From Clytia hemisphaerica (lineage: Eukaryota; Cnidaria; Hydrozoa; Leptothecata; Clytiidae), in the NCBI GenBank assembly GCA_902728285.1, contig CACVBU010000630.1:1-64000 (forward strand): a DNA stretch of 64,000 nt, in the 5' to 3' direction. Positions 1,686 through 53,751 of this stretch are shown here, piece by piece. Both the position numbers and the translations under genes were made by a program. Position 1 is the first letter of the stretch. Every line of letters begins with the position of its first letter. Below the pieces are notes generated by a model. The model had not been told where the DNA came from and ran no database searches. It saw only the letters and a program-made list of their open reading frames with translations.

Positions 1686-4077
1686 TACTTTTGGCTAGGT
1701 GGGCATGACTGGATGTGACGTAATCAGTGTCCACGATGACTTTAGAATTCGAACCTAGTATTGCTTTCGAATGTTGAGTTTGACTGTGAATGAGGTCATT
1801 TCGCTTTTTTCTTTTGATTTTGGGAGAAGTAATAACTAGATTAAATGTCTGAAAAAAACCTCTGAAGTCGAAAAGAACAAAAGTGGATAAATTTTGGACA
1901 AATGGCTGTGGTTGCAAATGGGACTCAAAGGAACAATGCGCCTCAATTAGTAGATGAATCGCCGCACTTACGGACACTATTTTTAAGTTGAGCACTGGAG
2001 GGTTTTTGGTGTTAGGTTTCATTTTAGCAACAACCAAAATTGGCGATACTACGTACGTCTTTATGGAAAACGGTTTTGTCGTGCGAACCTTTTATTCGTT
2101 TTGGATTTCTTCCTCTTCTAATACTTTTGTAAACATTTGAGGAGAAAGCACGGTAGCTCGTGAACATGGGAATAAGGACGTTACAATAAACTTTTCGCAA
2201 GCAACAAAGAGCACGCGTTAGTTTTTTAAATTTCGCTGAGGTTTGCTTTTACCGCCGGCAAGTCCCTCATTATAGAGATGAAGATGGTTCATACAGCTAA
2301 TTCCAGCACATCAACTAAGAAATCAGTTCATCAAAATTACCTTACTGCTTGCAGGAAATCACACTCGCCTATGGGTTTTATTCTTTCGTGTTATGGAAAA
2401 ACATCTGCCCACATTAAATTCTAAGACCATGGCTGACCCTCTCTGGCTTGCCAGCGGCAATACTAAATGATTAGAGCTCGTGCTAAAATGCAGAGGTAAT
2501 CACACTGAAGCAGATGAAGATTGATGAGTCCCCCCAATTATGAAGCGGCCAAGAAATCAGATATTATCGGCCCAAGTAGAAAGGCAAAGGAACTGCCAAA
2601 ATCTTGTTCAAAGCGCAGAAAATTTAATGCATTCGAAAGCAAACCTAAATTTCGTTAGAGGCATGCCCATTTTCTTGGATTATGCACAACGGTTCACTAC
2701 CCTTATCACCCACAACAACCTGGCCAAGTTTTTTCAAAAACCGCTAAATGTGGTCTTTTGGAGTTTTGCAATGACGGATCGGCATCCAGTACTGTTATTC
2801 ATTGATAAATAACAGCACTGGGAAAGATGCAATGCCACAAATCAGCTACGTCACCACTTTTTGGAGAATTGCAATTTTGGTGAAACTGAACTTATATCAG
2901 CTGATAACTGTTCGAGTATGTTAGCTTTAGTCCCTTAATTCTTGCACATTGTTTTTTATAAAATTATAAAGTGAAAGTCTAAATGTTCAGTTTCCAAAAA
3001 TGTAAACAGAAATTCTTGAAAAGATTCTCATAGACTGCTCAAGGTTTTTTTTTAATTCCTACAAAATACCTTCTACTAAAACCAAAATTAAAAAATGTTT
3101 TTTTGTCAACGTATTGGCAAAACAGAACAATGCTTCATTCGTTACTAATGTGGAGAATCATCTGATATCAGAGAAATTGGAAATTCTTTATGGTAGCTGG
3201 TCATACAAGTCGCTGGCGATAGGTACTCATGAGTGACATCTCTTTGTTTTTTTTCAGTTTCCCTGTGTCCATTATACGAAATTCCTACCTAAATGGGTTA
3301 ACTGTAAGGGGAAAATGACCTAGCTACTCGTCGCTCTTTTGCTTGCCTCTAGCTTTTTCTACTAGGCTTTGAGTATAAAAATCTTTTTGCCAATTTGGAT
3401 TGCAGGGCTTTTGGTGCATTCAAAAAGAAATTACGACGACTCAGTGTCTCATTGTATGATCTAAAGAATGTTTGTGACATACGACGTAGTGCTTGTTAGT
3501 GGGACTCATGATAACAGTCATGTGCCACTATGAGTGGACAGAGCTTTCCATACAGGGTTACAAATTTAAACCGCTTTGACAACAGTTAGAAGATCACCAT
3601 TTTACAGTCCTCGAAGAGAAGGCAAGATTTGTTCGAGAACTAGTGATACACCGGTAAAAGTATCGATCCTTGGAGATGTTCCAATTGAAAAAATTACTAG
3701 TGATTTGCCAAAAATTGTCATCCAAAAGGTTTCAGTACGAAAAGGAAGAAACCTTTATACAGATATTCGTGAATCATGCACAAGGAACAAAGGTCTCACA
3801 GCGCCTATCCAGACATGTAGTAGTCTATATAGGACATAAGACTTGTATTTATTTCTTAGTTCCGAGCACGAAAAGTGTTTCATCATCATTCATTGCGAAT
3901 TGATGTTAGTTGCATTCATGTGAATGCTAAGTCTAACTCTAAGATGTTAATACTCGTTCTTTATTGCAATTAAGAGACAAAAAATACTAGTAATCATGCG
4001 ATCGTATCACTTTTGATATGCTCGGTTTTTGTATGACTATACTTACACAGCCCTATGATTAATTTATCTTTTTTTTA
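1686..4077. other. Long stretch without a recognised gene
   Basis: Contains several reading frames of 65-125 codons on both strands (for example minus 2037-1660 and plus 3576-3839). None has a motif, a low-complexity signature or clean splice sites that I can support. No tandem repeat was seen. Confidence 0.35.
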
Positions 4078-14693: not shown

Positions 14694-15236
14694 GAATAGG
14701 GAGTGTAGCATCCTTTCTCTAGATCTGCGCGTGGCGTAAAAAAATCTGTATTATGTACGAAAATTTCTGAAAATGAGCCGGTGGGATGGCGAAATATCGA
14801 CTTTGCTTTGTGTTGGATGGGATCAAAGTTAGTTTAGCACTATTAGAAGTATTTGTTTCGTAAAATACTTATTTTAATAGAATGTAATCTATATTTTGAG
14901 TATTATAATGTAAGATTTTTTATGACAATTGCAACTTTTGTACAAATAATAGTAGTAGTGTCAAAACTTTATCTCCTTTGCTTTTTTCCCGCTCTTCCAG
15001 ATGTCTGGTCCTAGGCCTTTTTTGCGTTACAAAAATATTTTTTGTAGAATTTTGAAACTTTTCAACATCGCTGGTTTTCAACCTCACAGAAGTTTGAATT
15101 TGTCAAGGTATATCTTTGATGTTGAATGATTTGAATATTTGGGAGCCAATAATTTTTTTGAGCAATTATTATTTGGGTGTAATAATTTCTGGCTTTGAGT
15201 TAATAGAAAGTTTTGTTGTTTTTGTTTGGTTTAATA

Positions 15237-17060
15237 ATGTTAATTCCAATAAACATTGATAACATTGAAAAATTGTTGAAGAATACTGAGAAAATTTGTG
15301 CTGGTACTAACAATTATAGACGGATAGAGATACCAAAGTCCTGGCCTCAATACAGCACTGTCCCTGCCATATTAGAAACTGCACGTAGTAACGGGTTGAA
15401 TGTTTTCTGTGTAAGTGAAACACCTGGTGATGGTAATTGTTTTTATTGGGCAATAATTGAACAGCTACGCGACCGCGCTGATCTTAGTGGGGATATTTCT
15501 GCTTTGCGTTTACGGTACCCTAATCATCATTTATTGAGAAGTGCTGTTGTAGAATTTGTTAGGTCTGAAAGCCTTCTATCAGAGGAAGAGTCACCATACA
15601 TATTTCAGTACAAGGCTTTTTTTGAAACAGGAGCTGTGCGGATTGTTAGAGCAGAAGGTTTCAGCTGGAATCAATTCTTAAATCAACAACTATGTGATAC
15701 TGTTTACACTACAGAGGTTTTCGTTAAAGCTACTGCGGTTTTACTTGGAAAAGATATTTGTGTCAGTTCTGAGCAATGTCGATATGGCGATCCCCTACTC
15801 AGAGTAACGTGTTCATGGGATAACTTTGACCAGTTTGATGCGCATGAACCAGTAGGCAATTTTTTTTTGATAGCAAATGTAAATGGAAACCATTTCCAAT
15901 CACTTCTACCTGGTACTGCGGGACTCTTCAGTGATGTATACAACCATGGTTGTGTTTTATTGCCTGAGATTGAAACAGACATTGATTTTTCCATATCAAC
16001 AAATGTCTCTAAAAGGAAAACTCAAATTGCTTTAGAAAATGATGACTTTGGAGGGAATCAAGCAAAACGTATCAAGTTGTCTTCTATCACTATTAATTTA
16101 AACCCTATTGAGTTCGATCTGAGGGAAAGATGTTTGAATAGTGGGGTAGAATACATTGGTGCTGGTGAGCATGAATCCATGTCTGAAATGAAAAAACGAA
16201 GACAAAAGTTGAGCATGTCAATTATTGGCAAACAGAAAAGCATGTCTGCTGAGAAAGAACTTAAACACTTGTGTGTTGAAAAAGGTGTAGACTACATCAC
16301 ACCACCTCTTATTGAATCTGCAAAGGAAAGGAAAAATAGGAGAAGCAGAATACGTCGTCTTTTGAAACAAGCAAATAAGGAAATTACTGCAAATGTCAAA
16401 ACTAAAGAGGGAAGTACTAAAAATGTTGAAAAAAGTACATCTCGACCTCTACAAGTTAACAATATACCAGATGCTAATACGTCAGCTTCAAATGAGAATT
16501 CTGCATCAAACCTACATTCTAATCCTCGTGTTATTGAAGCGGCAAACATTTTTGAAGAAAATGAATTGAAACACGAGGTTAAAAAATGCAAAATTTGTAA
16601 TGAAGTGAGAACTGTTTTTCACCAAGCTCCTCAAGTACAGCGTATTTTGAATAAAAATGATTTGTATTCACCTTTTTCATGGTCAGTAAGGGAAGATGGT
16701 AAGTGCAACAGGTGCCATCAAGAGGAAAAAAGTAACAGCAAGAGGAAAAACCCCAGTGCTGCTCCTAAGTTTTCAGGTATTTTCACAAATAATGACATTG
16801 AAGGTAAAAGAGTCCCTCATAATAATATGCACTTTGAGGATGTACCCCCTTATTTGCAAAATTTGACTCTTCTTGAAACTGCTATGATTTCAAAGATTAA
16901 TACTATAACAAATATAACCATACTTAAGTATGGAATGCTAAAAGGTAAAGGGCACAGCATAGCTGTCCCAAATGACATGAAGATAGCAAAAACACTACCA
17001 AATCTCCCTCAAGAAGTGGGCATTATATTGCTTAGAAAGAAAGGTGCAAATGGTGAGTGA
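15237..17060 (+). pseudogene. OTU protease and DUF6570-like part of a Helitron-like helicase protein
   Basis: The first ATG in frame is at 15,237. An OTU cysteine-protease domain follows: PGDGNCFYWA carries the catalytic Asp and Cys (about residues 65 and 68), and NGNHFQSLLP carries the His (about residue 219). A basic Ser/Lys-rich middle leads to a Cys-containing block (KCKICNEVRTVFHQ..., CNRCHQEE) and a DUF6570-like segment (VPPYLQNLTLLETAMISKIN ... LPQEVGIILLRKKG). OTU and DUF6570 modules in front of Pif1 are typical of Helitron-related proteins. The frame ends at 17,060 after a one-base shift near 17,050; the same protein resumes in the next frame. GGTGAGT at this point also looks like a splice donor, but the reading continues directly after it. 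Confidence 0.75.
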
Positions 17061-17427
17061 AGTCTTGAAAGACTACACAGTTAGGCGGGATTTTGTTGAA
17101 AAGGCTTTAACAGGTCTTGTCTCTGGTTGGCCGAATGGAGGTATAGAAAATGCCTTACCAAACTACAAAATATATGACGGACCAGATCATATTCATACAC
17201 CTTTGAAAGGACGTTACTTTGAATGGGCTCCGAATCCTTTTTATTCTGATGTTATTATTGACTTTTTAAGGTTAAATGGATTGCCTCTAGATGGTAAACA
17301 AATATGTCCTGGAGTTCCTAATTTAGAGTTTAAAACAGAGATTCCTAACTTGAATAAAAATTTGTCTGAAGGTCAGCTAGGATGCTCAGATTTGGAAAAT
17401 ACTCACTCAGGCATTGTGACCCCCCCT
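17044..17427 (+). pseudogene. Continuation of the Helitron-like protein (linker before the Rep/helicase region)
   Basis: Resumes the family reading as SEVLKDYTVRRDFVEKAL and runs to a stop at 17,428-17,430, just after a run of seven C. The 'VRR-x-x-V-x-x-AL' pattern is usual between DUF6570 and the Helitron-like N region. Two small shifts between about 17,421 and 17,461 separate it from the next block, one probably in the C-run. In complete Helitrons the two-histidine nickase motif would lie between this block and the helicase. No such motif is seen, and only a short stretch is left for it. Confidence 0.6.
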
Positions 17428-17460
17428 TGAACCTAATGACATCATTAAAAATATTGAAAA

Positions 17461-18936
17461 ACTATTGATAGTGAGACTAAAACCTCAAAAGGAAAAGATA
17501 CTCATCCATTCCATTCACTTGTTACCAGTGGTGAACACCCACGCTTTGAAGGTAATAGAGATCACCCGTTTTTGATTTCCCATATTAAAGCCCGTTTGCT
17601 AACTTGGTTGGCTAATTCAGATACACAAGCCATAATTGATCAAGACTTAATGGCTCTTTTACGGTACATCTGTCAGTATGCCTGTAAAGGTGCAGCATCA
17701 ACAGATGACTTCATACGTTTGTATAAACATTTATTAGATCGTAATAGTGATGTTACATCTGTCAGGAGTATTGCCCATCAAATACTCATGAAAATCATTG
17801 GGATGATTGATATGCCAGCAGCAGCTGTTGACTTTTTAAATAGTGGTGGTCATTTATTTCATTGTACCAGACACTTTAGGAAGATAGGTCTCAGTGGTTG
17901 TCGTGCCATAAATTCAAAGCCATATGACGGCAATGCAACAAAGGAAACACCTTTGGAAAAGTTTTTGAGTGAAAAACGGCGAAAACAATATCCTAATATG
18001 ACTTTGTATACTTGGGCACAAATATGTATATGTTCACCTAAATGTGGAAAGAGCCATGTCCCTGTTTTCACAGGTATTCCAACTCTTCCGATATGGCCAC
18101 TGAAAGAGGATTACTGTAAAGGCCAGTTGATGATTCATTCACCGCGAACATGGGAAAATGTCGATGAACTGAAACAAGGAAAAGAATCTTTTTTGGAAGC
18201 ATTCTTTGAGTTTTTGGAAAGTGATTTATGCCCAACAGTTGTGAAAGAACTTGTGAAGAATGCCAAAAAAGAAAATGACAAAAAGGTCGAGAGAGATCGT
18301 AAAAGAGCAAACAGAAGGAAGGATTTTGACCCAACTGAAAGCTCGTCTGATTATGATTTTGAATCTGACGATGAGTTTGAAAATGAAATCAGAAACGAAA
18401 ATGAGTTTATGAAATACTTGGTTGAGAATAGACCTCAAGAGTTTGAAGATTTGCATGCCTTTAGAGATCTGCCTGATGGTGGAGAAGGGTTTGATTGGCA
18501 TCAGCATGCAACTCAGTGTTTTGGAGGTGATTGGCCTGATGGTGCGTCAGATTGGCTTGAAAACATCTCAAAGGTTGCAGAAGAAAGGCAACAGGCTCAA
18601 AACCAGGATTGTGATTTAACACCCAATATTGATTTATTGAAGGCTAATGCGCTTCAAAGAGTGATTATAGCCATCAACATCCTGAATATCATGTCTGGCG
18701 TTAACAATGAAGACCAGGAAAAGGTGCGTCTCTTAGTTCAAGGGACAGCTGGGAGTGGTAAAACGTTCACCATTGTTGCCTTAACTTATTTGGCTCGACG
18801 ATTCTGCAATCGTAACAATGCTGTGATGAATCTAGCACCAACAGGAGCTGCATCTATTCTCCTACCCTTTGGGCGAACTGTTCACTCAACAACCAAGAGT
18901 GAAGAAAAAAGAATCCAAAACATTGCAGTTAACTGA
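17461..18936 (+). pseudogene. Helitron-like middle region and N-terminal half of Pif1 helicase
   Basis: Opens with a linker, then MALLRYICQYACKGAAS (about 17,650-17,700), which resembles the tyrosine motif of Helitron nickase domains. Next come YCKGQLMIHSPRTW, usual just before the helicase, an acidic linker (DPTESSSDYDFESDDEFENE), and helicase motif I GTAGSGKTF (about 18,743-18,769) with APTGAA. It breaks at a one-base shift in the A-rich run near 18,905 and terminates at 18,936; the rest of the helicase is in the next frame. Confidence 0.7.
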
Positions 18937-20128
18937 TAAGCCATTGAATAGTATATCTCTCACTGCCTTACGTGAACTAACCGGTAGCAATCTGGAAGGT
19001 AATTCTATGAAATTAATGACCTTAAATTTAGATGAAAGAGGTATGTATAGTCATCGTGTTTTAGCATGGTGTAGTCAACGTTTTAGAGAGGCCACATGTG
19101 ATTTCTCCAACAATTTTGGTGCAATACCAGCTGTAAATTTTTTTGGAGATTTGGGTCAATTAGGGCCTGTTGATGCAAAAGATTTGCACATTGAGCCATT
19201 ATCTTCAGATTCTCCTGATAAGCTTGCAGGTTATGCAATCTATCGTACATTTTCACATTGTATTGTTTTAAATGAGACGATGCGACAAGGGCCAGATCAA
19301 ATATCCTTTTTGGAAATGTTATTGAGAATCAGAGAAGGTAAGCTAAATCTGGATGATTGGAAGACAATTAATTCTAGGTATGAAGGAGATCTTCCTGAGA
19401 GTATGAGAGAAGATTTTAAATTGGATACTTGTCTAACCGTCATGGAAACATGGCAAGAGGTCAATGTTGAAAATCACAGCAAACTTTATGATTTACAAGT
19501 CCCTGTTGCTACTATACCAAGCAAGGGAAAGGGTCGCCATCACACTCAATCTGTTAATCAGATGGGCCAAATACCTGCAATTTCATACATTGCTGTTGGA
19601 AGTCGGGTACTTCTGACTAAAAATCAGCTCAGTCTAACACCTCTTGGTTTGAATAATGGAGCCATTGGGAAAGTGGTTGCAATTTTGTATGCTGAGGGTG
19701 AGGGACCTCCATCATTTCCTGAAGCTGTTGTTGTTTATTTCCCACGATACAAAGGCCCAAGCTGGATCCCTGAACATCCTTCATGGGTTCCAATACCTGT
19801 AAATGAATCACGGTGTGATAATAACTGTTGTTCTAGGAGGGGCTTGCCATTGATGCCTGGTTATTGTATTCCAATTTCAAAAAGTCAAGGTATGACCATA
19901 GGTCCGAATGAACAATGTACTCATATAAGGTTAAAGCTGAATCAAGAGATTTTCATGGAAAAACTTAACCTTGGCATTACTTATACTGCCCTCAGTAGAG
20001 CATCCAAATTAGAAAATGTTGCTCTGGTAAACAAAATCCCCTTTGATCGACTAGAGTACATCAATAAACATCCAATACTTACAGAGAACTGTTATGTGAA
20101 TTTGATAGCTTTGTCAATGATGGCCTAA
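18869..20128 (+). pseudogene. C-terminal half of the Pif1-type helicase
   Basis: After the frameshift the frame carries a motif II equivalent (LDERGMYSHRVLAW, with DE kept), NFFGDLGQLGPV (motif III), ETMRQ (motif IV area), a long central region, PISKSQGMTIG (motif V) and YTALSRAS (motif VI), ending at 20,128. The order and motifs are those of SF1B Pif1/RecD-like helicases. All helicase motifs are present, so the gene was disabled only by a few frameshifts. Those could also be assembly errors, since they sit in or near homopolymers. Confidence 0.8.
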
Positions 20129-42977: not shown

Positions 42978-43184
42978 CTACAATCAGGTCTGTAATATTT
43001 TGGCAGTAAGCCTCAAAAACAACCCCTCAGCTATGTTTTTAAATCTCTAAGCCCCCTCCCCCCAACTTCAATGGTTGATAAGCCCCAGAGAGCCAAATCC
43101 AACCATTGAAGTTGGGGGGAGGGGTTTGACTTCAAAAAACATGAAAATCACTGTTTACTGCCAAATATTACAGAACTGATTGTC
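42978..43184. repeat. Left-end palindrome of the Rep element
   Basis: 42,978-43,076 and 43,101-43,184 are imperfect reverse complements. They pair at ACAATCAG/CTGATTGT, CTGTAATATTT/AAATATTACAG, GGCAGTAA/TTACTGCC and CCCCAACTTCAATGGTTG with its complement, around a 24-nt spacer. Confidence 0.75.
43125..43183 (+). repeat. 59-bp direct repeat, left copy
   Basis: Begins TTTGACTTCAAAAAACATG and ends ACAGAACTGATTGT. It matches 45,189-45,247 at 58 of 59 positions. It contains AAATATTAC, one base from the TAATATTAC motif of the origin. Confidence 0.9.
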
Positions 43185-43416
43185 TGTATTTGAGAAAAAA
43201 AATTGAAAAGGGAATGTACAAGCTTCTAGTAAAAAATTTCCCACAAATAAAGTAACAAAAAGGTGAAAAATAAGCTCTATAATTCTCTATACTGCAGCCA
43301 GGAAGCAAGGGGCTTCTTCCGACCACGTTTTTCGGCTACCATTTTGAATGCTAATTACACATCCAGTGAAATGAGAATTTCCGATTTTCGAATCCAGTGA
43401 AAACGTAAACAAACTT

Positions 43417-43427
43417 TTTGGCGGGAA
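43417..43427 (+). promoter_or_regulatory. E2F-like site upstream of Rep
   Basis: TTTGGCGGGAA is a textbook E2F binding sequence, placed 19 bp before the Rep ATG. E2F drives S-phase genes in animals and plants. Activity here is inferred. Confidence 0.5.
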
Positions 43428-43446
43428 TTTTAAAAGTAGATTCAAA

Positions 43447-44937
43447 ATGGCTGACCGTAGAAGTGAAGACAGTGAAAGTGATTCGGATTTTGAGGATTGT
43501 GATGAAAGGAAGACTGCCAGAACATATTTATTAACTTATAGTCAAGCAGACTTAGAGAAAGTGAACTCCACCAGACTATTCGCAGACATTGTACTTGAAG
43601 CGTTAAATGAGGGCACCAGTAAAGTTGAGATCACACAGTCGGCAGCATGTCGGGAGCCGCATGCTGATGGTGGAAAACATTACCACATGCTTGTAAAACT
43701 CAATGGGACGCGGAAGTGGAAGCCCATATTTAATAGTATCCGGGACACTTGGGCGATCAATGTTAATTTCTCTACCACCAAAAAGGGATATCTGCGGGGG
43801 TATCGATACGTAATCAAAGACAAACCTTCTGAGATGGTCGTTCACAGCCCCGGCCACCCTGATCTTACCAGCGCGAAATCCCCAAAATCTAAAAAGGGCT
43901 TCATCAAATCTTCGCAGAACGCAAAGCAAAAACGCAAACGTAAACGCTTGGCTGCTGCGGAAAATAATGCGCCTCCTCCCCCTCCACCTCGTCCTGTTCC
44001 CGTTCCTGTTCCTGCCCCTGTCAACGCTGCTGTACACCACAATGACCAATTTTCCCCAAGGCTTAAGCCCGAGCACGTGATGAAATTTATTAGGAGGAAC
44101 AACCTGAGAACTGAACTTGAACTATTAGCCGCCACGAAAAACAGGGAAGCGGAAGGTTTATCGGATGTTTATAATAATATAGGCCGTCAAACTTCAAAGT
44201 CATTGAATGACCTTCTTGCTATGACGTGGAGATTGGAAGAAGCCCCTGCCTTGGTACAGCGCCAAAAGATGTCACGTATGGAGGTTGTTCTTAGTTTTCT
44301 CCACAAGCCTTGCGTGGAAGGCTGCAATTCCACATGGTTAGACGCTGCGATAGAAATTCTCCACAACAATGACATTAATGTTTTTGTATTCGCAGACCAT
44401 ATACGCAAGTGCCTAACCGTAGGCCGCTCTAAATATACAAACATTTTATTGCATGGGCCACGAAACTGCGGGAAGTCTTTCCTCCTAAACCCCCTCGAGG
44501 ACATGTATAAAACTTTTATTAACCCGACAGAGGGTAAGTACTGCTGGGTGGGCCTTGACGACTGTGAGGTGGCCCTTTTACAAGATCTCAGATGGAGCCC
44601 CGAGCTGATAAAGTGGAGTGACTTTCTCGTCTTAATCGAAGGTCAAACTGTTCACCTTGCACGTCCCAGAAATGTTTACCCCACTGACATGACCATCCCC
44701 AAATCGAACACCATCCCATTTTTCGCAACCACCAAGTTACCCTTAGTCTACAACAGGGGTGGATTCTCAAGGGAAGAACCTCAAGAGGAGAAAGACAAGA
44801 ATAAGGACACCCTGATGATGGATGCGCGTTGGCGACAAATAAAATTCACCCATGAAATGCCACAGGAGACCCTTAGAAAAATAAAGGAGTGCCCGCATTG
44901 CTTCAGTGTGCTCGTCACCCGTGGCATGAATGACTGA
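43447..44937 (+). CDS. rep: Intact CRESS-DNA replication initiator (Rep), HUH nickase plus SF3 helicase, 496 aa
   Basis: ATG at 43,447 in AAAATGGCT context. Acidic N-terminus, then HUH-endonuclease motif I (YLLTYSQ, residues 27-33), motif II (HYH, 78-80) and motif III (YVIK, 121-124, catalytic Tyr). A basic NLS-like KQKRKRKR (160-167) and a Pro/Val hinge follow. The C-terminal half is an SF3 helicase: Walker A GPRNCGKS (337-344), Walker B VGLDDCE (368-374), motif C around IPFFATT (423-429), and a late RWRQIKF arginine-finger candidate. Rep proteins nick a hairpin origin and start rolling-circle replication. All catalytic motifs are present and the frame is unbroken, unlike the host transposon. 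496 aa is longer than usual viral Reps because of the hinge and tails. Codon use is richer in GC than neighbouring exons. Confidence 0.88.
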   Translation: MADRRSEDSESDSDFEDCDERKTARTYLLTYSQADLEKVNSTRLFADIVLEALNEGTSKVEITQSAACREPHADGGKHYHMLVKLNGTRKWKPIFNSIRDTWAINVNFSTTKKGYLRGYRYVIKDKPSEMVVHSPGHPDLTSAKSPKSKKGFIKSSQNAKQKRKRKRLAAAENNAPPPPPPRPVPVPVPAPVNAAVHHNDQFSPRLKPEHVMKFIRRNNLRTELELLAATKNREAEGLSDVYNNIGRQTSKSLNDLLAMTWRLEEAPALVQRQKMSRMEVVLSFLHKPCVEGCNSTWLDAAIEILHNNDINVFVFADHIRKCLTVGRSKYTNILLHGPRNCGKSFLLNPLEDMYKTFINPTEGKYCWVGLDDCEVALLQDLRWSPELIKWSDFLVLIEGQTVHLARPRNVYPTDMTIPKSNTIPFFATTKLPLVYNRGGFSREEPQEEKDKNKDTLMMDARWRQIKFTHEMPQETLRKIKECPHCFSVLVTRGMND

Positions 44938-45021
44938 ACATAAAAACTCAAAGCCTCCATACGTTAATATTTGTTTTTGATGGAAGTATCTTGCCACCTG
45001 GTTGCAGTTGTGTTTTTTAAA

Positions 45022-45184
45022 GTGTGTCACCAATGCGTCACCAATTGGAAAGTAGGTTTTTCAGGCAAAATATTGTGCGTCACCATGTGTCACCATGCGT
45101 CACCAACTTTTTTTTTAAAGTAATATTATATAATATTACTTTAAAAAAAAAAGTGGTGACGCATGGTGACGCATGGTGACACAC
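45022..45184. repeat. Eight 10-bp iterons (ATGCGTCACC / GGTGACGCAT)
   Basis: Reverse-oriented copies at 45,022, 45,033, 45,075, 45,085 and 45,095; forward copies at 45,155, 45,165 and 45,175. The core GTCACC is constant. Directly repeated iterons beside a hairpin are how CRESS Reps recognise their own origin. Confidence 0.85.
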
Positions 45185-45190
45185 AATATT
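45069..45190. promoter_or_regulatory. Candidate rolling-circle origin: 122-bp hairpin with TAATATTAC
   Basis: The two 61-nt arms are complementary with about four mismatches around a centre at 45,129/45,130. The apex TAATATTATATAATATTA presents TAATATTAC on the plus strand (45,131-45,139) and, as its complement, on the minus strand (45,120-45,128). TAATATTAC is the conserved nonanucleotide nicked in geminivirus origins. The stem holds three iterons per arm. Confidence 0.85.
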
Positions 45191-45247
45191 TGACTTCAAA
45201 AAACATGAAAATCACTGTTTACTGCAAAATATTACAGAACTGATTGT
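45189..45247 (+). repeat. 59-bp direct repeat, right copy
   Basis: Matches 43,125-43,183 with one mismatch and abuts the origin hairpin. The start-to-start distance between copies is 2,064 bp. Confidence 0.9.
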
Positions 45248-45396
45248 AGGTATAAAAGATGTTGTAAATTATGGAAATAATATTTTAAATTAAATTGAAT
45301 CAGTTCACTATTTCCATTCATAATGTTATTTGGATCTGTCTGTGTGTGGCACTGTATAATACCTTATATATTAAATCCTTTTCAAATTTGTTTTAG

Positions 45397-46083: not shown

Positions 46084-46357
46084 GTAAAAATTATTTTAAA
46101 TCAACACTCTTTTTTCGGTAGTCTTTCCTGGAGTTAAATTTTGCAAAGAAAATTGTAATTCACAGGAACAAATTTTTTGTCTAACTTATTGGTTCTTTCT
46201 GTATGGCCAAAAAATATTCCCTGCTGGTTCAGGCTGGTTCTATTATAAGGTAGTTTACCATTTTTTGCATTAAAAATCTCAAAGTTGTTCGCAAGTTTTT
46301 TGGTTTGCAAGTAATGAAATTTGATATTAAAAAAAGTAATTTTTTTCACTACTTTAG

Positions 46358-46773
46358 GTTTTAATCTTGATATCGTGGAAGATCTTACTGAAAGAACAAG
46401 CAAATTTAGTGAATCTGAACGTTTTGTTACCATTTTGATCGACGAAATGAAAATCCAGGAAGATTTGGTCTGGGACAAAAACACTGGGCAACTTATTGGG
46501 TTCGTTGATTTCGGTGATGACCAAATCAATGAAGCGCTTATCGAAGACAAGGAGAAATTGGCAACCCATATCATGGTCTTCTTGGTCAAAAGTGTCAAAA
46601 ATCCCCTATCGTATAGCTTTGCCAATTTCGCAACAGATGGTGCATCGTCCTGTCAAATTTTCTCATTATTCTGGAAATGTGTTGGCATTTTAGAAATATC
46701 TTGTAATCTCAAGGTTATTGCAACTGTGGCTGATGGTGCATCAATTAACCGTAGATTTATGCAAATGAATAGG
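46358..46773 (+). pseudogene. P-element-like transposase, exon 4 (catalytic region)
   Basis: GFNLDIVEDLTERTSKFSES, then VTILIDEMKIQEDLVWDKNT and GQLIGFVDFGDD, the signature block of P-element/THAP9 transposases with catalytic Asp. It continues through FANFATDGASSCQIF and ATVADGASINRRF. The frame is unbroken, and splice phases agree on both sides. Confidence 0.8.
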
Positions 46774-47075
46774 GTGAGTACATTGATATTTATATATCTA
46801 TATGAGACAAAGGGACCCAGAGAAGACTGGTCATCTTCTCATTGTAACATAGTCTCTCTAGGAGGAATAGAGTTTGGCCAATCTTTGTTGTTTGTAAATC
46901 TGAGGGGAGAAAATATCACATGTTCATAATAGTACTTTTCAGTCTCTGACAATTAATAACTCTCCCCCCCCCCACTACTTAAAGATTTTTTGAAAAATAT
47001 TTTAAATATTTCCTTTCATATCAGCCCTCTTCTCATAATTTTTTGCTCATGTTATTTCCGTTATTTTTTCACCAG

Positions 47076-49218: not shown

Positions 49219-50523
49219 TTATGGATTTACTGATGGATCCTCCAATTCCACTTCTTTTAATCCGAGAAGCCTACAGTAAATATTACACTTGTGTGCATCG
49301 AAAAAGTTGGTGAAAGCAGTTTCGTTCAGATTTCCTGCACAAAAATATCTTTCATTTTCATTTTGTTGAAGTTCATCTGCTGTTGCAATTTCTGGATCGT
49401 ACAAGGTGTAACCGCTGCCTTGCAAGTCGACAAGGAGCAATTTCTCATAACTTTCTTGGTACGAAAAATGTGTAAGAGCTTCAGCCTTCTCATACATGAA
49501 ATTCAAGTCATTTCTTACTTTACATGGTACACCATCATTATTAAGATACTTGATGAAGGCTCCGTCAACAAAAGGCTCCACTGTAACTGGCTCACCATCA
49601 AGAATACTAAAAAAAATAGTTTGATATGTGAACCATTTTTCACGAAAACCAGGCCTTGTAACACATTTCACTGTGATAGCTTTAGCTGTAGTATGCATCT
49701 GCACTTGTTTTCGAGTGTGCTGCTCAAGGGTCATTTCATAGCGTGGCCCACATACTTCCCAAGCTGTTGCCTTGAATTTCTTAATGACCCACATTTTTGT
49801 CGCATCATTCTCTGTTTTGTACGCTTTAAATGCATTACGAAATCCTCCATCAGCAAACTTTTGTAATTGCATACGAAAGGTTAAAGGTGTTTGTTTCAGC
49901 CATATTCCATGTTTTATATTGAAAGATTCAAGTATCAATGGTACTTCCTTCTCCTCTGTTGGAATCACCAGCTTTCCTGCATTTAAGAGGTCACCGATGG
50001 AGATAGATGTTGGCATACTATTTTGTGGGCAAGGTTGCTTTGAAGTCAAGACTGATGTCCTTTTCCTCTTACTCTTGACTGGTTTAGAAAAAAGAACACT
50101 TTTTACACTGTCATTTTCTCTCTTTGAGGACATGCGGTTGGTTTCATTTGAAGATGACATAGGTTTATTGGAAATCTCTGACGGCTTGACAAACCGCACA
50201 CGGAAAAATTTCATCCCAGAAAGTTGTTCATCTAATGAACAAGAAGGTCCTAACACATCATAAAGAACATCACAAGAGCCAGCTGCTTCTCCATAGAACT
50301 TCTCACAAGCATCCTTTACATTTTTCAGTGTTAACTTCGAATATGATGAAAAGTCAATGAAATCCCTTGGTTGTGCAGGTTCATACCTCTTAAGTTTTCC
50401 TACTGGGACTGGCTTCATTCTATGAACTATAAGTGTTGAAACTTCCTTTATGTTTTTTTTGGTATTTCCTCCAGAGCGCTTATCTGAAATGGCTCTTCGA
50501 TAACCTTTCCACTTTTCATTCAT
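49219..50523 (-). CDS. Alpha-kinase domain protein, 434 aa
   Basis: Intact minus-strand frame. The N-terminal part (about 1-115) includes DFIDFSSYSKLTLKNVKDAC and GPSCSLDEQL, and a Ser/Lys-rich linker follows (about 120-175). The C-terminal alpha-kinase domain shows KFADGGFRNAFKA (222-234), WVIKKF (245-250), VEPFVDGAFIKYLNNDG (315-331), LTHFSYQES (350-358), LLLVDLQGSGYTLYDPEI (362-379) and CAGNLNETAFTNFFDAHKC (395-413) with the downstream Cys of the zinc site. This is the MHCK/eEF2K/TRPM-type atypical Ser/Thr kinase fold. A splice-acceptor-like TTTTTTATAG lies 18 nt upstream of the ATG, so a 5' UTR intron is possible. The substrate is unknown. It may be a host gene or a transposon passenger. 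Confidence 0.85.
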   Translation of the reverse strand: MNEKWKGYRRAISDKRSGGNTKKNIKEVSTLIVHRMKPVPVGKLKRYEPAQPRDFIDFSSYSKLTLKNVKDACEKFYGEAAGSCDVLYDVLGPSCSLDEQLSGMKFFRVRFVKPSEISNKPMSSSNETNRMSSKRENDSVKSVLFSKPVKSKRKRTSVLTSKQPCPQNSMPTSISIGDLLNAGKLVIPTEEKEVPLILESFNIKHGIWLKQTPLTFRMQLQKFADGGFRNAFKAYKTENDATKMWVIKKFKATAWEVCGPRYEMTLEQHTRKQVQMHTTAKAITVKCVTRPGFREKWFTYQTIFFSILDGEPVTVEPFVDGAFIKYLNNDGVPCKVRNDLNFMYEKAEALTHFSYQESYEKLLLVDLQGSGYTLYDPEIATADELQQNENERYFCAGNLNETAFTNFFDAHKCNIYCRLLGLKEVELEDPSVNP

Positions 50524-51812: not shown

Positions 51813-53751
51813 ATGTCTAAGAGAAAAATATACAATACAACAGAGGCAGTATCTTATATTTTGGAAGATTTGCCCTCAGATGATGATTTGTCTGATCTTG
51901 AGTCATCCGAAGACGATGATGACGAAATTGACCATTTAGCGGATAACGCTTTACCGGCAAGAGATAATGAAATGAATGATGACTTTCAGACTGTTCCTGA
52001 TGATCAACTTGATGAAAATAGTGATGAAGTGAATGAAACTAGTGGTGTTGCTGAGTTACTAGCTGAGGATGATTTGACCGATGAAGGCAGTACGGACGAC
52101 AACAATACAACTGATGGCGGTACGACCAGCGTTGACGCAAACAAACTAAGTACAGCTGCTGATGTCGTTGATGACCAAGCTAAAGGTGACAGTGGTAAAT
52201 CATCTGGTAAAGCTGCATCTTCTGATGAAGTTTATAAATGGAAAAAGTCACAAATGGCCTTATAAACCTTCAACATTTTCTTCACACGAGGGCCCTGTGC
52301 TTGCTTATTTTGGCGATTGTAACACCCCCAATGACTATTTTCTTAAATTTTTTGACAACGAAATTCAAGAAAACATTCTTTACCAAACAAACTTGTATGC
52401 TACCCAGAAACAAAATGGTAAAGCAATAACACCTATCAGCCGACAGGAACTGTATGGTTTCTTAGGAATAAATCTACTCATGGGATACAATAAGCTTCCG
52501 TCGTGGTTGGATTATTGGAAAACTGACCCTGATTTGGCTACGCCGTATGTTTCAAATGTCATGAGTCGCAATAGATTTGGACAGATTCTCTGGAACTTAC
52601 ATGTGAATGACAATGCTCGAATTCCAAAAAACAATACTGATAAACTGTACAAATTACGCCCTCTTATAGATAGCCTTAATGGGAACTTTTTGAAGTTGTA
52701 CGATGCATCGCGCTATCTCAGTATTGATGAAAGTATGATTTTATTCAAAGGGAGACACTCTATCAAGCAGTATAATCCTAAAAAACCAATAAAAAGAGGG
52801 TACAAACTGTGCATGATTGCTGACACTGATGGGTACATCAATAAATTTGATGTATACCAAGGAAAGTTTGAATCTGTCCCTGAAAATCTTAAGTCTTTTG
52901 GTCTTGGTGAGCGCGTAGTATTGAAACTTGTCGACCACCTTCATCACAAAGACCATGAGGTTTATATTGACAACTATTTCACATCAATTTCATTATTGTC
53001 TCAGTTGCAAACTGTTGGTGTCCGGGCTTGCGGGACTATAAAGGGGAACCGCAAGCATATTCCCACTAATCTGCAACGAGATAAGTCAATGCAACGCGGA
53101 GACTTCGATTACAGGCTTGCGTGTGAAATATCTTATTATAAGTGGATGGACTGAAAGCCAGTAACTGTTGTTTCTAATTTCAATGGAACCTCCTCAACAA
53201 AGATCTTACGTCGATTGAGAGATGGTAGCCGTAAGGAATTTAACTGCCCGTTGGCAATAAAAGAATACAATATGTACATGGGCGGTGTTGATCAGGCAGA
53301 TTTCAAGTGTGCGGTCAATGGCCTTAGTCGGAAATCGACAAAATGGTGGCATCGGATTTTTTTTGGATTGCTTGACCGAACTCTGTCAAATGCATTTATT
53401 GTCTTCAGAAAGCTGGAAAACAACAACATGCCCATGTTGAGTTACCGGAGACTTGTTGTTCAGTCACTTGTTACTTTGTCAAAACCGCCGAAAGTTGGTC
53501 GACCACTTGGCAATTCTCCCTTACCGGCATCCAAAAAGCGGCGGAAAGCAGACTATTCCGTTTCAAAAAGCATTAGATTGGAGAATAAAGGTTGCCACTG
53601 GATAGTCTTCGAGGAAAAGAGGGGAAGATGTGAAGTCTGCAGCAAACAGAACATTGAGTCTAGACCTTTCAGCAAATGTTCGACATGCCAGGTCTACCTT
53701 TGTTGCAATCCTAGCAAAAACTGCAACCTTATATTTCATGAAGCAATCTGA
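51813..53751 (+). pseudogene. piggyBac transposase, disabled by a frameshift and a stop
   Basis: Start MSKRKIYNTTEAVSYI at 51,813, directly after an acceptor-like TTTTACAG. Acidic N-terminus, then the DDD transposase core: LSIDESMILFKGR, VYIDNYFTSI and GGVDQADF carry the three catalytic aspartates. The C-terminus has the Cys-rich zinc finger (CEVCSKQN, CSTCQVYLCC). A one-base shift near 52,250 in an A-run moves the reading into the next frame, and TGA at 53,152-53,154 interrupts it after YYKWMD. All catalytic residues remain, so inactivation is recent. Confidence 0.9.

What the first reader, a model, noticed from the sequence alone, without database searches (positions are those of the whole stretch)
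42978..45249. CRESS-type rolling-circle replicon lodged in a P-element intron
Seen: an intact 496-aa Rep with HUH motifs I-III and SF3 helicase motifs, an E2F-like site before it, iterons and a TAATATTAC hairpin after it, all within inverted ends. Known: this set (Rep, iterons, nonanucleotide hairpin) defines origins of geminivirus-like CRESS DNA replicons. Inference: the unit is a mobile or recently integrated replicon that lost, or never had, a capsid gene. Usually endogenous Rep copies are decayed and lack an origin, so an intact Rep beside a matching origin is unusual.
Basis: partly seen in the sequence, partly recalled or inferred. Interest (0 to 1): 0.93.

Follow-up and report, generated by a model that had tools for sequence, protein, structure and literature searches.

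The report
Transposon with rolling-circle replication gene
The stretch is a shortened copy of a mobile element that in its full form pairs a virus-like DNA replication protein with a cut-and-paste transposase, and that sits in many copies, some in tandem, in an animal genome that is probably a coral or a relative.

Summary
In detail: an intact 496-aa Rep, iterons, a large palindrome and inverted ends lie at 42978-45249. The interpretation changes. This is a deletion copy of a transposon whose structurally complete copies (about 4.3 kb) read U-Rep-palindrome-transposase-U. U is a ~205-bp unit with its own inverted ends and a hairpin, repeated in direct orientation. The second gene is a DD34E Tc1/mariner-type transposase facing Rep; no long ORF suggests a capsid. 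The own genome holds 122 merged Rep loci; 77 have the transposase convergent within 3.5 kb, and 17 contigs hold two or more copies head to tail. An empty site shows that the window copy entered CTAG and duplicated TA. Rep and transposase homologs also share contigs elsewhere; relatives occur in named corals. TAATATTAC is not conserved between families; a palindrome with family-specific repeats mostly is. Likely mechanism: the transposase integrates (footprint shown); Rep amplifies a circular or concatemeric form (inferred). Multimers could also come from recombination; the flanks of one array point that way. Prior art: a truffle Rep-transposase element (PMC3198968) and KolobokP (PMC9587614). 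New variant of a known kind.

The parts
42979..42980 (.). left copy of the duplicated target TA (host C at 42978)
   Evidence: empty site C542 reads CTGCCTGCTAGGTATAAAAG with one TA
42981..43182 (+). left unit U: ends CAATCAG..CTGATTG, imperfect inverted repeats, internal hairpin; inner border reads TCT (43183-43185)
43053..43124 (.). hairpin in U, 25-nt perfect arms CCCCTCCCCCC..GGGGGGAGGGG, 22-nt loop; similar C-rich/G-rich hairpin in U of other families
43415..43427 (+). E2F-like site TTTTTGGCGGGAA before Rep
   Evidence: TTTGGCGGGAA upstream of Rep in 8 of 18 loci examined
43447..44937 (+). Rep, 496 aa, HUH endonuclease plus SF3-type helicase, intact
45023..45183 (.). iterons TGYGTCACCA, 5 direct and 3 inverted, partly 10 bp apart
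45057..45202 (.). palindrome, 73-nt arms, AT-rich centre (candidate Rep origin)
45120..45139 (.). centre GTAATATTATATAATATTAC; TAATATTAC on both strands; not found at the centre in other families
45189..45192 (.). deletion junction, TTTG microhomology; transposase gene and most of the right U are missing here
   Evidence: comparison with L009
45189..45246 (+). remnant of the right U, ends in ..CTGATTG
45247..45248 (.). right copy of the duplicated target TA (host G at 45249)
46321..46926 (+). part of the host P-like transposon (TNP-like RNase H domain) that the element interrupts

Best explanation
A composite-like DNA transposon with two engines. Complete copies are U-Rep-palindrome-transposase-U. 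The DD34E Tc1/mariner-type transposase recognises the CAATC../..GATTG ends of U and inserts everything between two such ends (one U alone, or U-Rep-transposase-U) into CTAG, duplicating TA. Rep, made in S phase through an E2F-type promoter, binds family-specific iterons in the palindrome between the two genes, nicks there and replicates a circular form carrying one U; rolling-circle products are head-to-tail concatemers, which supply the U-to-U substrate and the arrays. The window copy is a non-autonomous derivative that kept Rep, the palindrome and both outer ends. Shown: structure, linkage, conserved catalytic residues, TA footprint at one CTAG site, head-to-tail copies, solo U. Inferred: nicking at the palindrome, circles, S-phase timing, concatemers as the integration substrate.
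For: Full copies and solo U. Transposase identity. 77 of 122 merged Rep loci with convergent transposase, 1 other orientation, 44 without; about 0.0004 expected per locus if transposase loci lay at random. Linkage in other sequence sets: 6 Rep/transposase pairs agree in contig length, source and contig count, jitter mean 0.07, maximum 2 in 5000 trials. Empty site. Border rule: host side CTA/TAG, inner side AGA/TCT in the window family and C254; parts of it in further families. Palindrome beyond all 100 shuffles in 7 of 9 loci. 17 contigs with two or more copies in one direction, spacing 3.75-4.88 kb; three units of C254 without a mismatch over 3,857-3,858 aligned bases. Purifying selection: Rep dN/dS 0.125 and 0.03, transposase 0.38.
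Against: No circle, nick or transcript was observed. Arrays can also arise by unequal or ectopic recombination: the two flanks of the C254 array belong to two different host repeats, each with CTAG at the junction, and the C827 and C751 copies share a right flank but not a left one (by eye). The right ends of C625's array and of the C827 copy are not clean TAG ends. SF3 motif C lacks the usual Asn (recalled consensus). The palindrome test failed in 2 of 9 loci. Rep dN/dS within the C625/C850 family was 0.40 and 0.70 on few changes. 44 of 122 Rep loci have no transposase match near.
Confidence: 0.6

Rival explanations
1. Cut-and-paste transposon whose multimers come from homologous recombination between U units (as proposed for KolobokP); Rep acts only as a nuclease or helicase that provokes recombination, without rolling-circle replication.
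For: Flanks of the C254 array come from two different repeats; C827/C751 share one flank; KolobokP forms the same multimers with a homing endonuclease instead of Rep (PMC9587614, section 15 read); motif C deviates.
Against: HUH residues are kept in 35 of 35 and Walker A Lys in 34 of 35 aligned sequences, and a palindrome with family-specific repeats lies beside Rep in 7 of 9 loci, which fits an origin better than a recombination hotspot.
Confidence: 0.3
2. Integrated CRESS virus or capsid-less replicon, with the transposase beside it by chance.
For: HUH plus SF3 Rep with weak geminivirus Rep similarity; palindrome with iterons.
Against: Linkage in 77 of 122 loci and in other sequence sets; precise CTAG/TA insertion; two IMG/VR scans with no confirmed relative; no ORF above 108 aa besides the transposase in the C827 copy's second half.
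Confidence: 0.05
3. Rep has been taken over as a transposition cofactor: it unwinds or nicks the element in place during host replication to offer the transposase ends, without any free circle.
For: Convergent genes with the palindrome between them; hairpin kept inside U.
Against: Does not by itself explain identical head-to-tail units.
Confidence: 0.05

Closest known systems
Geminivirus-like transposon of the truffle Tuber melanosporum (Liu et al. 2011, PMC3198968)
   Same: Rep gene plus transposase ORFs inside terminal inverted repeats, multi-copy (abstract and passages read).
   Different: Fungal; the authors' reconstructed copy has an interrupted Rep and interrupted or truncated transposase ORFs; 37-bp ends and no obvious target duplication; no terminal direct repeats or multimers in the passages read. 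Sequence relation not tested. The same paper counts 18 Rep-like sequences in Hydra and reports parvovirus-like elements there, without a transposase in the passages read.
KolobokP (Kojima and Bao 2022, PMC9587614)
   Same: Terminal direct repeats with their own inverted ends, solo repeats, multimers (repeat-internal)n-repeat, a transposase plus a second nuclease (abstract, passages and section 15 read).
   Different: [quoted passage not shown] repeats of ~450 or ~660 bp instead of ~170-213 bp.
IS630-Tc1-mariner transposons
   Same: DD34E catalytic triad, HTH_Tnp_Tc3_2, TA duplication at CTAG (that IS630 prefers CTAG is recalled).
   Different: No Rep gene, palindromic origin or terminal direct repeats in ordinary members (recalled).
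CRESS-DNA viruses (Geminiviridae and others)
   Same: HUH endonuclease plus SF3 helicase Rep, iterons, origin-like palindrome.
   Different: Second gene is a transposase; nonanucleotide not conserved and placed in a stem; helicase motifs B and C deviate; helicase profile nearest to papillomavirus E1 among solved structures.
Helitrons and Replitrons
   Same: Eukaryotic mobile elements with a HUH protein (recalled).
   Different: Helitrons carry Pif1-type helicases and lack a DDE transposase and TA duplication (recalled); Replitrons were not compared here.

Membership tests
CRESS-DNA virus or replicon | HUH Rep with motifs I-III | tested here: met
   T30, Y31, H78, H80, Y121, K124 in 35 of 35 aligned sequences
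CRESS-DNA virus or replicon | SF3 helicase with motifs A, B, C | tested here: inconclusive
   Walker A Lys in 34 of 35; motif B is [N/Q]D; motif C position is Lys in 33 of 35 instead of Asn (consensus recalled)
CRESS-DNA virus or replicon | nonanucleotide NANTATTAC in a hairpin loop (recalled) | tested here: not met
   in the stem in the window family; at the palindrome centre in 2 of 15 loci, both of that family
CRESS-DNA virus or replicon | capsid gene | tested here: not met
   by ORF length only: besides the transposase, no ORF above 108 aa in L009 3300-5600; the short ORFs were not searched against libraries
CRESS-DNA virus or replicon | circular single-stranded form | not testable with these tools
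   no reads
Tc1/mariner (IS630-Tc1-mariner) transposon | DDE triad | tested here: met
   D173, D272, E307 in 26 of 26 aligned sequences, 34 residues between the last two; DDE_3 E 7.7e-12
Tc1/mariner (IS630-Tc1-mariner) transposon | TA target duplication | tested here: met
   empty site with one TA; one site only; a second site was sought and not found
Tc1/mariner (IS630-Tc1-mariner) transposon | terminal inverted repeats | tested here: met
   25 nt, 96%
KolobokP | terminal direct repeats with own inverted ends, solo units, multimers | tested here: met
KolobokP | Kolobok transposase and His-Me nuclease | tested here: not met
   transposase is DDE_3/Tc3-type; second gene is Rep
Truffle Rep-transposase element | Rep plus transposase between inverted ends | tested here: met
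   text of PMC3198968
Truffle Rep-transposase element | common descent of its Rep and transposase with these | not tested

The most novel reading that the evidence does not exclude
A deep lineage of animal transposons that multiply outside the chromosome by Rep-driven rolling-circle replication and return by a DDE transposase acting on head-to-tail concatemers, so that integrated size is set by which two U ends are chosen; solo U elements and arrays are by-products of one cycle.
Probability: 0.5. Interest if true: 0.88.

Novelty: new variant of a known kind. Interest (0 to 1): 0.74.

Why it matters
It joins, in one conserved and apparently recently active animal element, an initiator of rolling-circle replication and a cut-and-paste transposase. 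That bears on how Rep-encoding viruses and transposons arise from each other, and makes it testable whether concatemers feed a DDE transposase. It also gives a likely identity to unnamed proteins of corals such as Acropora millepora and Montipora foliosa.

Tried and rejected
Capsid gene in the missing part: the complete copies hold a transposase there. Viral relatives: none confirmed in two IMG/VR scans; none in the phage records with the HUH piece. Nonanucleotide as conserved origin core: rejected. AAATATTAC inside U as a second nick site: the C254 U reads AAATATTATT, so not conserved. RNA families at gathering score and tRNAs: none in the window. Structure prediction of Rep was never accepted, so no fold search was made. 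A second empty site was sought for the C254 array: no listed place spans the joined flanks, which are two different repeats. The same question for the C374 and C751 copies did not complete. Own-genome searches with the left half of U and with the palindrome did not complete. The coral CMITE paper (PMC2872659, abstract only) links its elements to piggyBac; not pursued. Of the ten literature searches no listed title or abstract start names a Rep plus Tc1/mariner transposon in animals; several lists were cut far below the number of papers found, and subscription papers and preprints are not covered.
Full report
What was checked. The Rep ORF at 43447-44937 is intact. Its first part matches Gemini_AL1 and REP_ORF2-G2P only weakly (E 8.9e-4 and 7e-4, both below the curated cut-offs), its second part the papillomavirus E1 helicase (E 2.3e-5, below cut-off). 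A profile of 35 sequences (the window's Rep and 34 of the 47 relatives) finds E1 helicases first among solved structures (1tue, E 0.0017), with one Rep endonuclease at E 0.064. H78, H80, Y121 and K124 are invariant in 35 of 35; Walker A Lys is in 34 of 35; motif B is Asn-Asp or Gln-Asp; the motif C position is Lys in 33 of 35. The last two are departures from the CRESS consensus as I recall it.

Repeats. The repeat finder gave the inverted ends, and also a 65-nt direct repeat and a hairpin at the left end. This did not fit a simple replicon between inverted ends. Searching the last 60 nt in the own genome (417 Mb, 951 contigs) gave 25 places. Mapping pieces of the window element on 20 loci around them showed structurally complete copies at C827, C105 and C374 and one split by a large insertion at C751: a ~205-bp unit U, Rep, the palindrome, about 1.85 kb more, and U again in direct orientation (C827 4,363 bp, C105 4,253 bp). 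Rep is whole in C827; it is broken in C105 and split by two insertions of about 1.4 and 1.0 kb in C374. C662 and C128 hold damaged copies with one U found. Thirteen loci hold U, whole or in part, without Rep pieces.

The second gene. The extra stretch carries, on the opposite strand, a 374-aa ORF in C827 and C374, broken in C105 and split in C751. Pfam: DDE_3 (E 7.7e-12) and HTH_Tnp_Tc3_2 (E 2e-7); nearest solved structure Sleeping Beauty (E 9.6e-7). D173, D272 and E307 are invariant in 26 of 26 aligned sequences (the C827 protein and 25 relatives chosen from the 120 listed of 284), with 34 residues between the last two: DD34E. Besides it, the largest ORF in that part of C827 is 108 aa and overlaps the transposase on the other strand; the short ORFs were not searched against libraries. 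The window copy lacks the transposase: its palindrome joins the right U at TTTG, a word present at both break points of the complete copy.

Linkage. In the own genome, 133 Rep matches and 116 transposase matches, merged to 122 and 106 loci, give 77 Rep loci with a transposase convergent within 3.5 kb, 1 in another orientation, and 44 with none; the median gap is 590 bp. The matches are lower bounds, many are fragments, and both queries came from the window's family. In other sequence sets, 47 Rep relatives and 119 of the 120 listed of 284 transposase relatives (one without contig length left out) include 6 pairs that agree in contig length, source and number of contigs (3,908, 4,062, 4,487, 4,660, 16,501 and 28,679 bases); jittered lengths gave a mean of 0.07 and at most 2. 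A seventh equal length (1,873) differs in source and is too short for both genes; I count it as chance. Three further equal lengths appear with the Reps (3,906, 5,330, 5,066), but source or contig number differs and I do not count them. The contigs themselves could not be read. Rep and transposase identities to the window-family proteins correlate over 33 hand-picked linked pairs (Spearman 0.69; no correction for relatedness).

Insertion. At the host side, U reads CTA-CAATC and GATTG-TAG; at the inner side AGA-CAATC and GATTG-TCT. In one search, of 20 outer left ends 13 read CTA, 4 differ from it by one base, 1 by more, and 2 were not located; of 17 outer right ends 12 read TAG, 4 TAA, 1 neither; two of these loci (L022, L023) share their flanks and are duplicates. 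In other families: C254 (65% Rep identity) shows both sides; C65 (42%) shows CTA outside and TCT inside at its left U; C625, C319 and C748 show the inner AGA/TCT only. The joined flanks of the window copy match C542:15658-15849 at 98% over 192 of 192 bases, with CTAG at the junction and one TA; the flanking similarity runs on for about 1.1 kb to the left (in two pieces) and 1.6 kb to the right. So the element entered CTAG and duplicated TA. That IS630 prefers CTAG is recalled, not tested.

Arrays. On 17 contigs, two or more Rep loci follow each other on one strand at 3.75-4.88 kb; nine contigs have a single such step, eight have more. At C254, three units have no mismatch over 3,857-3,858 aligned bases and a fourth is 97.7% alike over 3.4 kb. 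The array starts with CTA and ends with two overlapping U units and TAG. At C625, seven Rep copies and one damaged one lie in a row, and the right end stops a few bases beyond U, without TAG. Against a single concatemer insertion at C254: no listed place in the genome spans its joined flanks; they belong to different host repeats, each with CTAG at the junction. The right flank of the C827 copy is, by eye, the right flank of C751, and C827 runs 24 nt into a next unit before the host sequence. So recombination between copies has probably also been at work.

Origin candidate. Between the 3' ends of Rep and transposase lies a palindrome with inverted repeats of a family-specific word around an AT-rich centre. 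It exceeds all 100 dinucleotide shuffles in 7 of 9 loci, about four families; the loci at C759 and the second C748 element fail. TAATATTAC is at the centre in the window and C827 copies only, 2 of 15 loci. A C-rich/G-rich hairpin or its remains is in each of nine U units examined, picked where both ends could be located. TTTGGCGGGAA precedes Rep in 8 of 18 loci, another E2F-like word occurs in 6, none in 4; 12 further loci of the 30 fetched were not examined, and no shuffle control was run.

Selection and age. Window versus C827 Rep: 15 synonymous and 7 nonsynonymous changes, dN/dS 0.125; two C254 units: 9 and 1, 0.03; within C625/C850 one comparison gave 0.70 on 18 changes and two gave 0.40 on 5; the remaining ones had no changes or saturated dS. 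Transposase of C827 versus C374: 10 and 14, 0.38. Left and right U of one element are 99.0, 98.1, 96.7 and 92.2% alike (C827, C751, C105, C374).

Spread. A profile search, which scored only the 7,999 candidates sharing most words, found 128 Rep proteins, among them unnamed proteins of Paramuricea clavata, Acropora millepora and Montipora foliosa. The host is therefore probably an anthozoan; this was not determined.

Comparison with what is known. Liu et al. 2011 (PMC3198968; abstract and passages read) describe a truffle element with an interrupted Rep, two damaged transposase ORFs and 37-bp inverted ends without obvious target duplication, and count Rep-like sequences in Hydra. Kojima and Bao 2022 (PMC9587614; abstract, passages and one section read) describe KolobokP with terminal direct repeats, solo repeats and multimers, and weigh unequal crossover against circles. 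Kazlauskas et al. 2019 (PMC6668415; passages read) treats HUH replicons in general. The present elements combine the gene pair of the first with the architecture of the second. No listed title or abstract start of ten searches names this combination in animals; the lists were capped.

Verdict. A real, multi-copy, apparently recently active transposon lineage; the window holds a Rep-bearing deletion copy. Integration by the transposase is supported by its footprint; rolling-circle amplification is the likeliest role of Rep but is inferred.

Noticed in passing
window 15213-20128 (+): ORFs with DUF6570, a weak OTU-like protease match and a PIF1-type helicase: looks like a Helitron.
   Followed up: no
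window 52162-53154 (+): ORF with a DDE_Tnp_1_7 (piggyBac-type) transposase domain (E 1.6e-79).
   Followed up: no
window 49219-50523 (-): 434-aa ORF with an alpha-kinase domain (E 2.9e-29).
   Followed up: no
L009 5579-5900 and L012: The C827 and C751 copies share the right host flank but not the left one, a sign of recombination between copies or of a duplication.
   Followed up: partly
L060, C254:3398333-3399894: A tandem satellite of about 176 bp follows the C254 array at once; its repeat family has many copies in the genome.
   Followed up: partly
L039 (C522): A damaged U lies in inverted orientation before this Rep, with another inverted repeat between U and Rep (by eye).
   Followed up: no
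A1 columns at Rep 379-380 and 430: SF3 motif B is Asn/Gln-Asp and the motif C position is Lys in nearly all of this Rep lineage.
   Followed up: no
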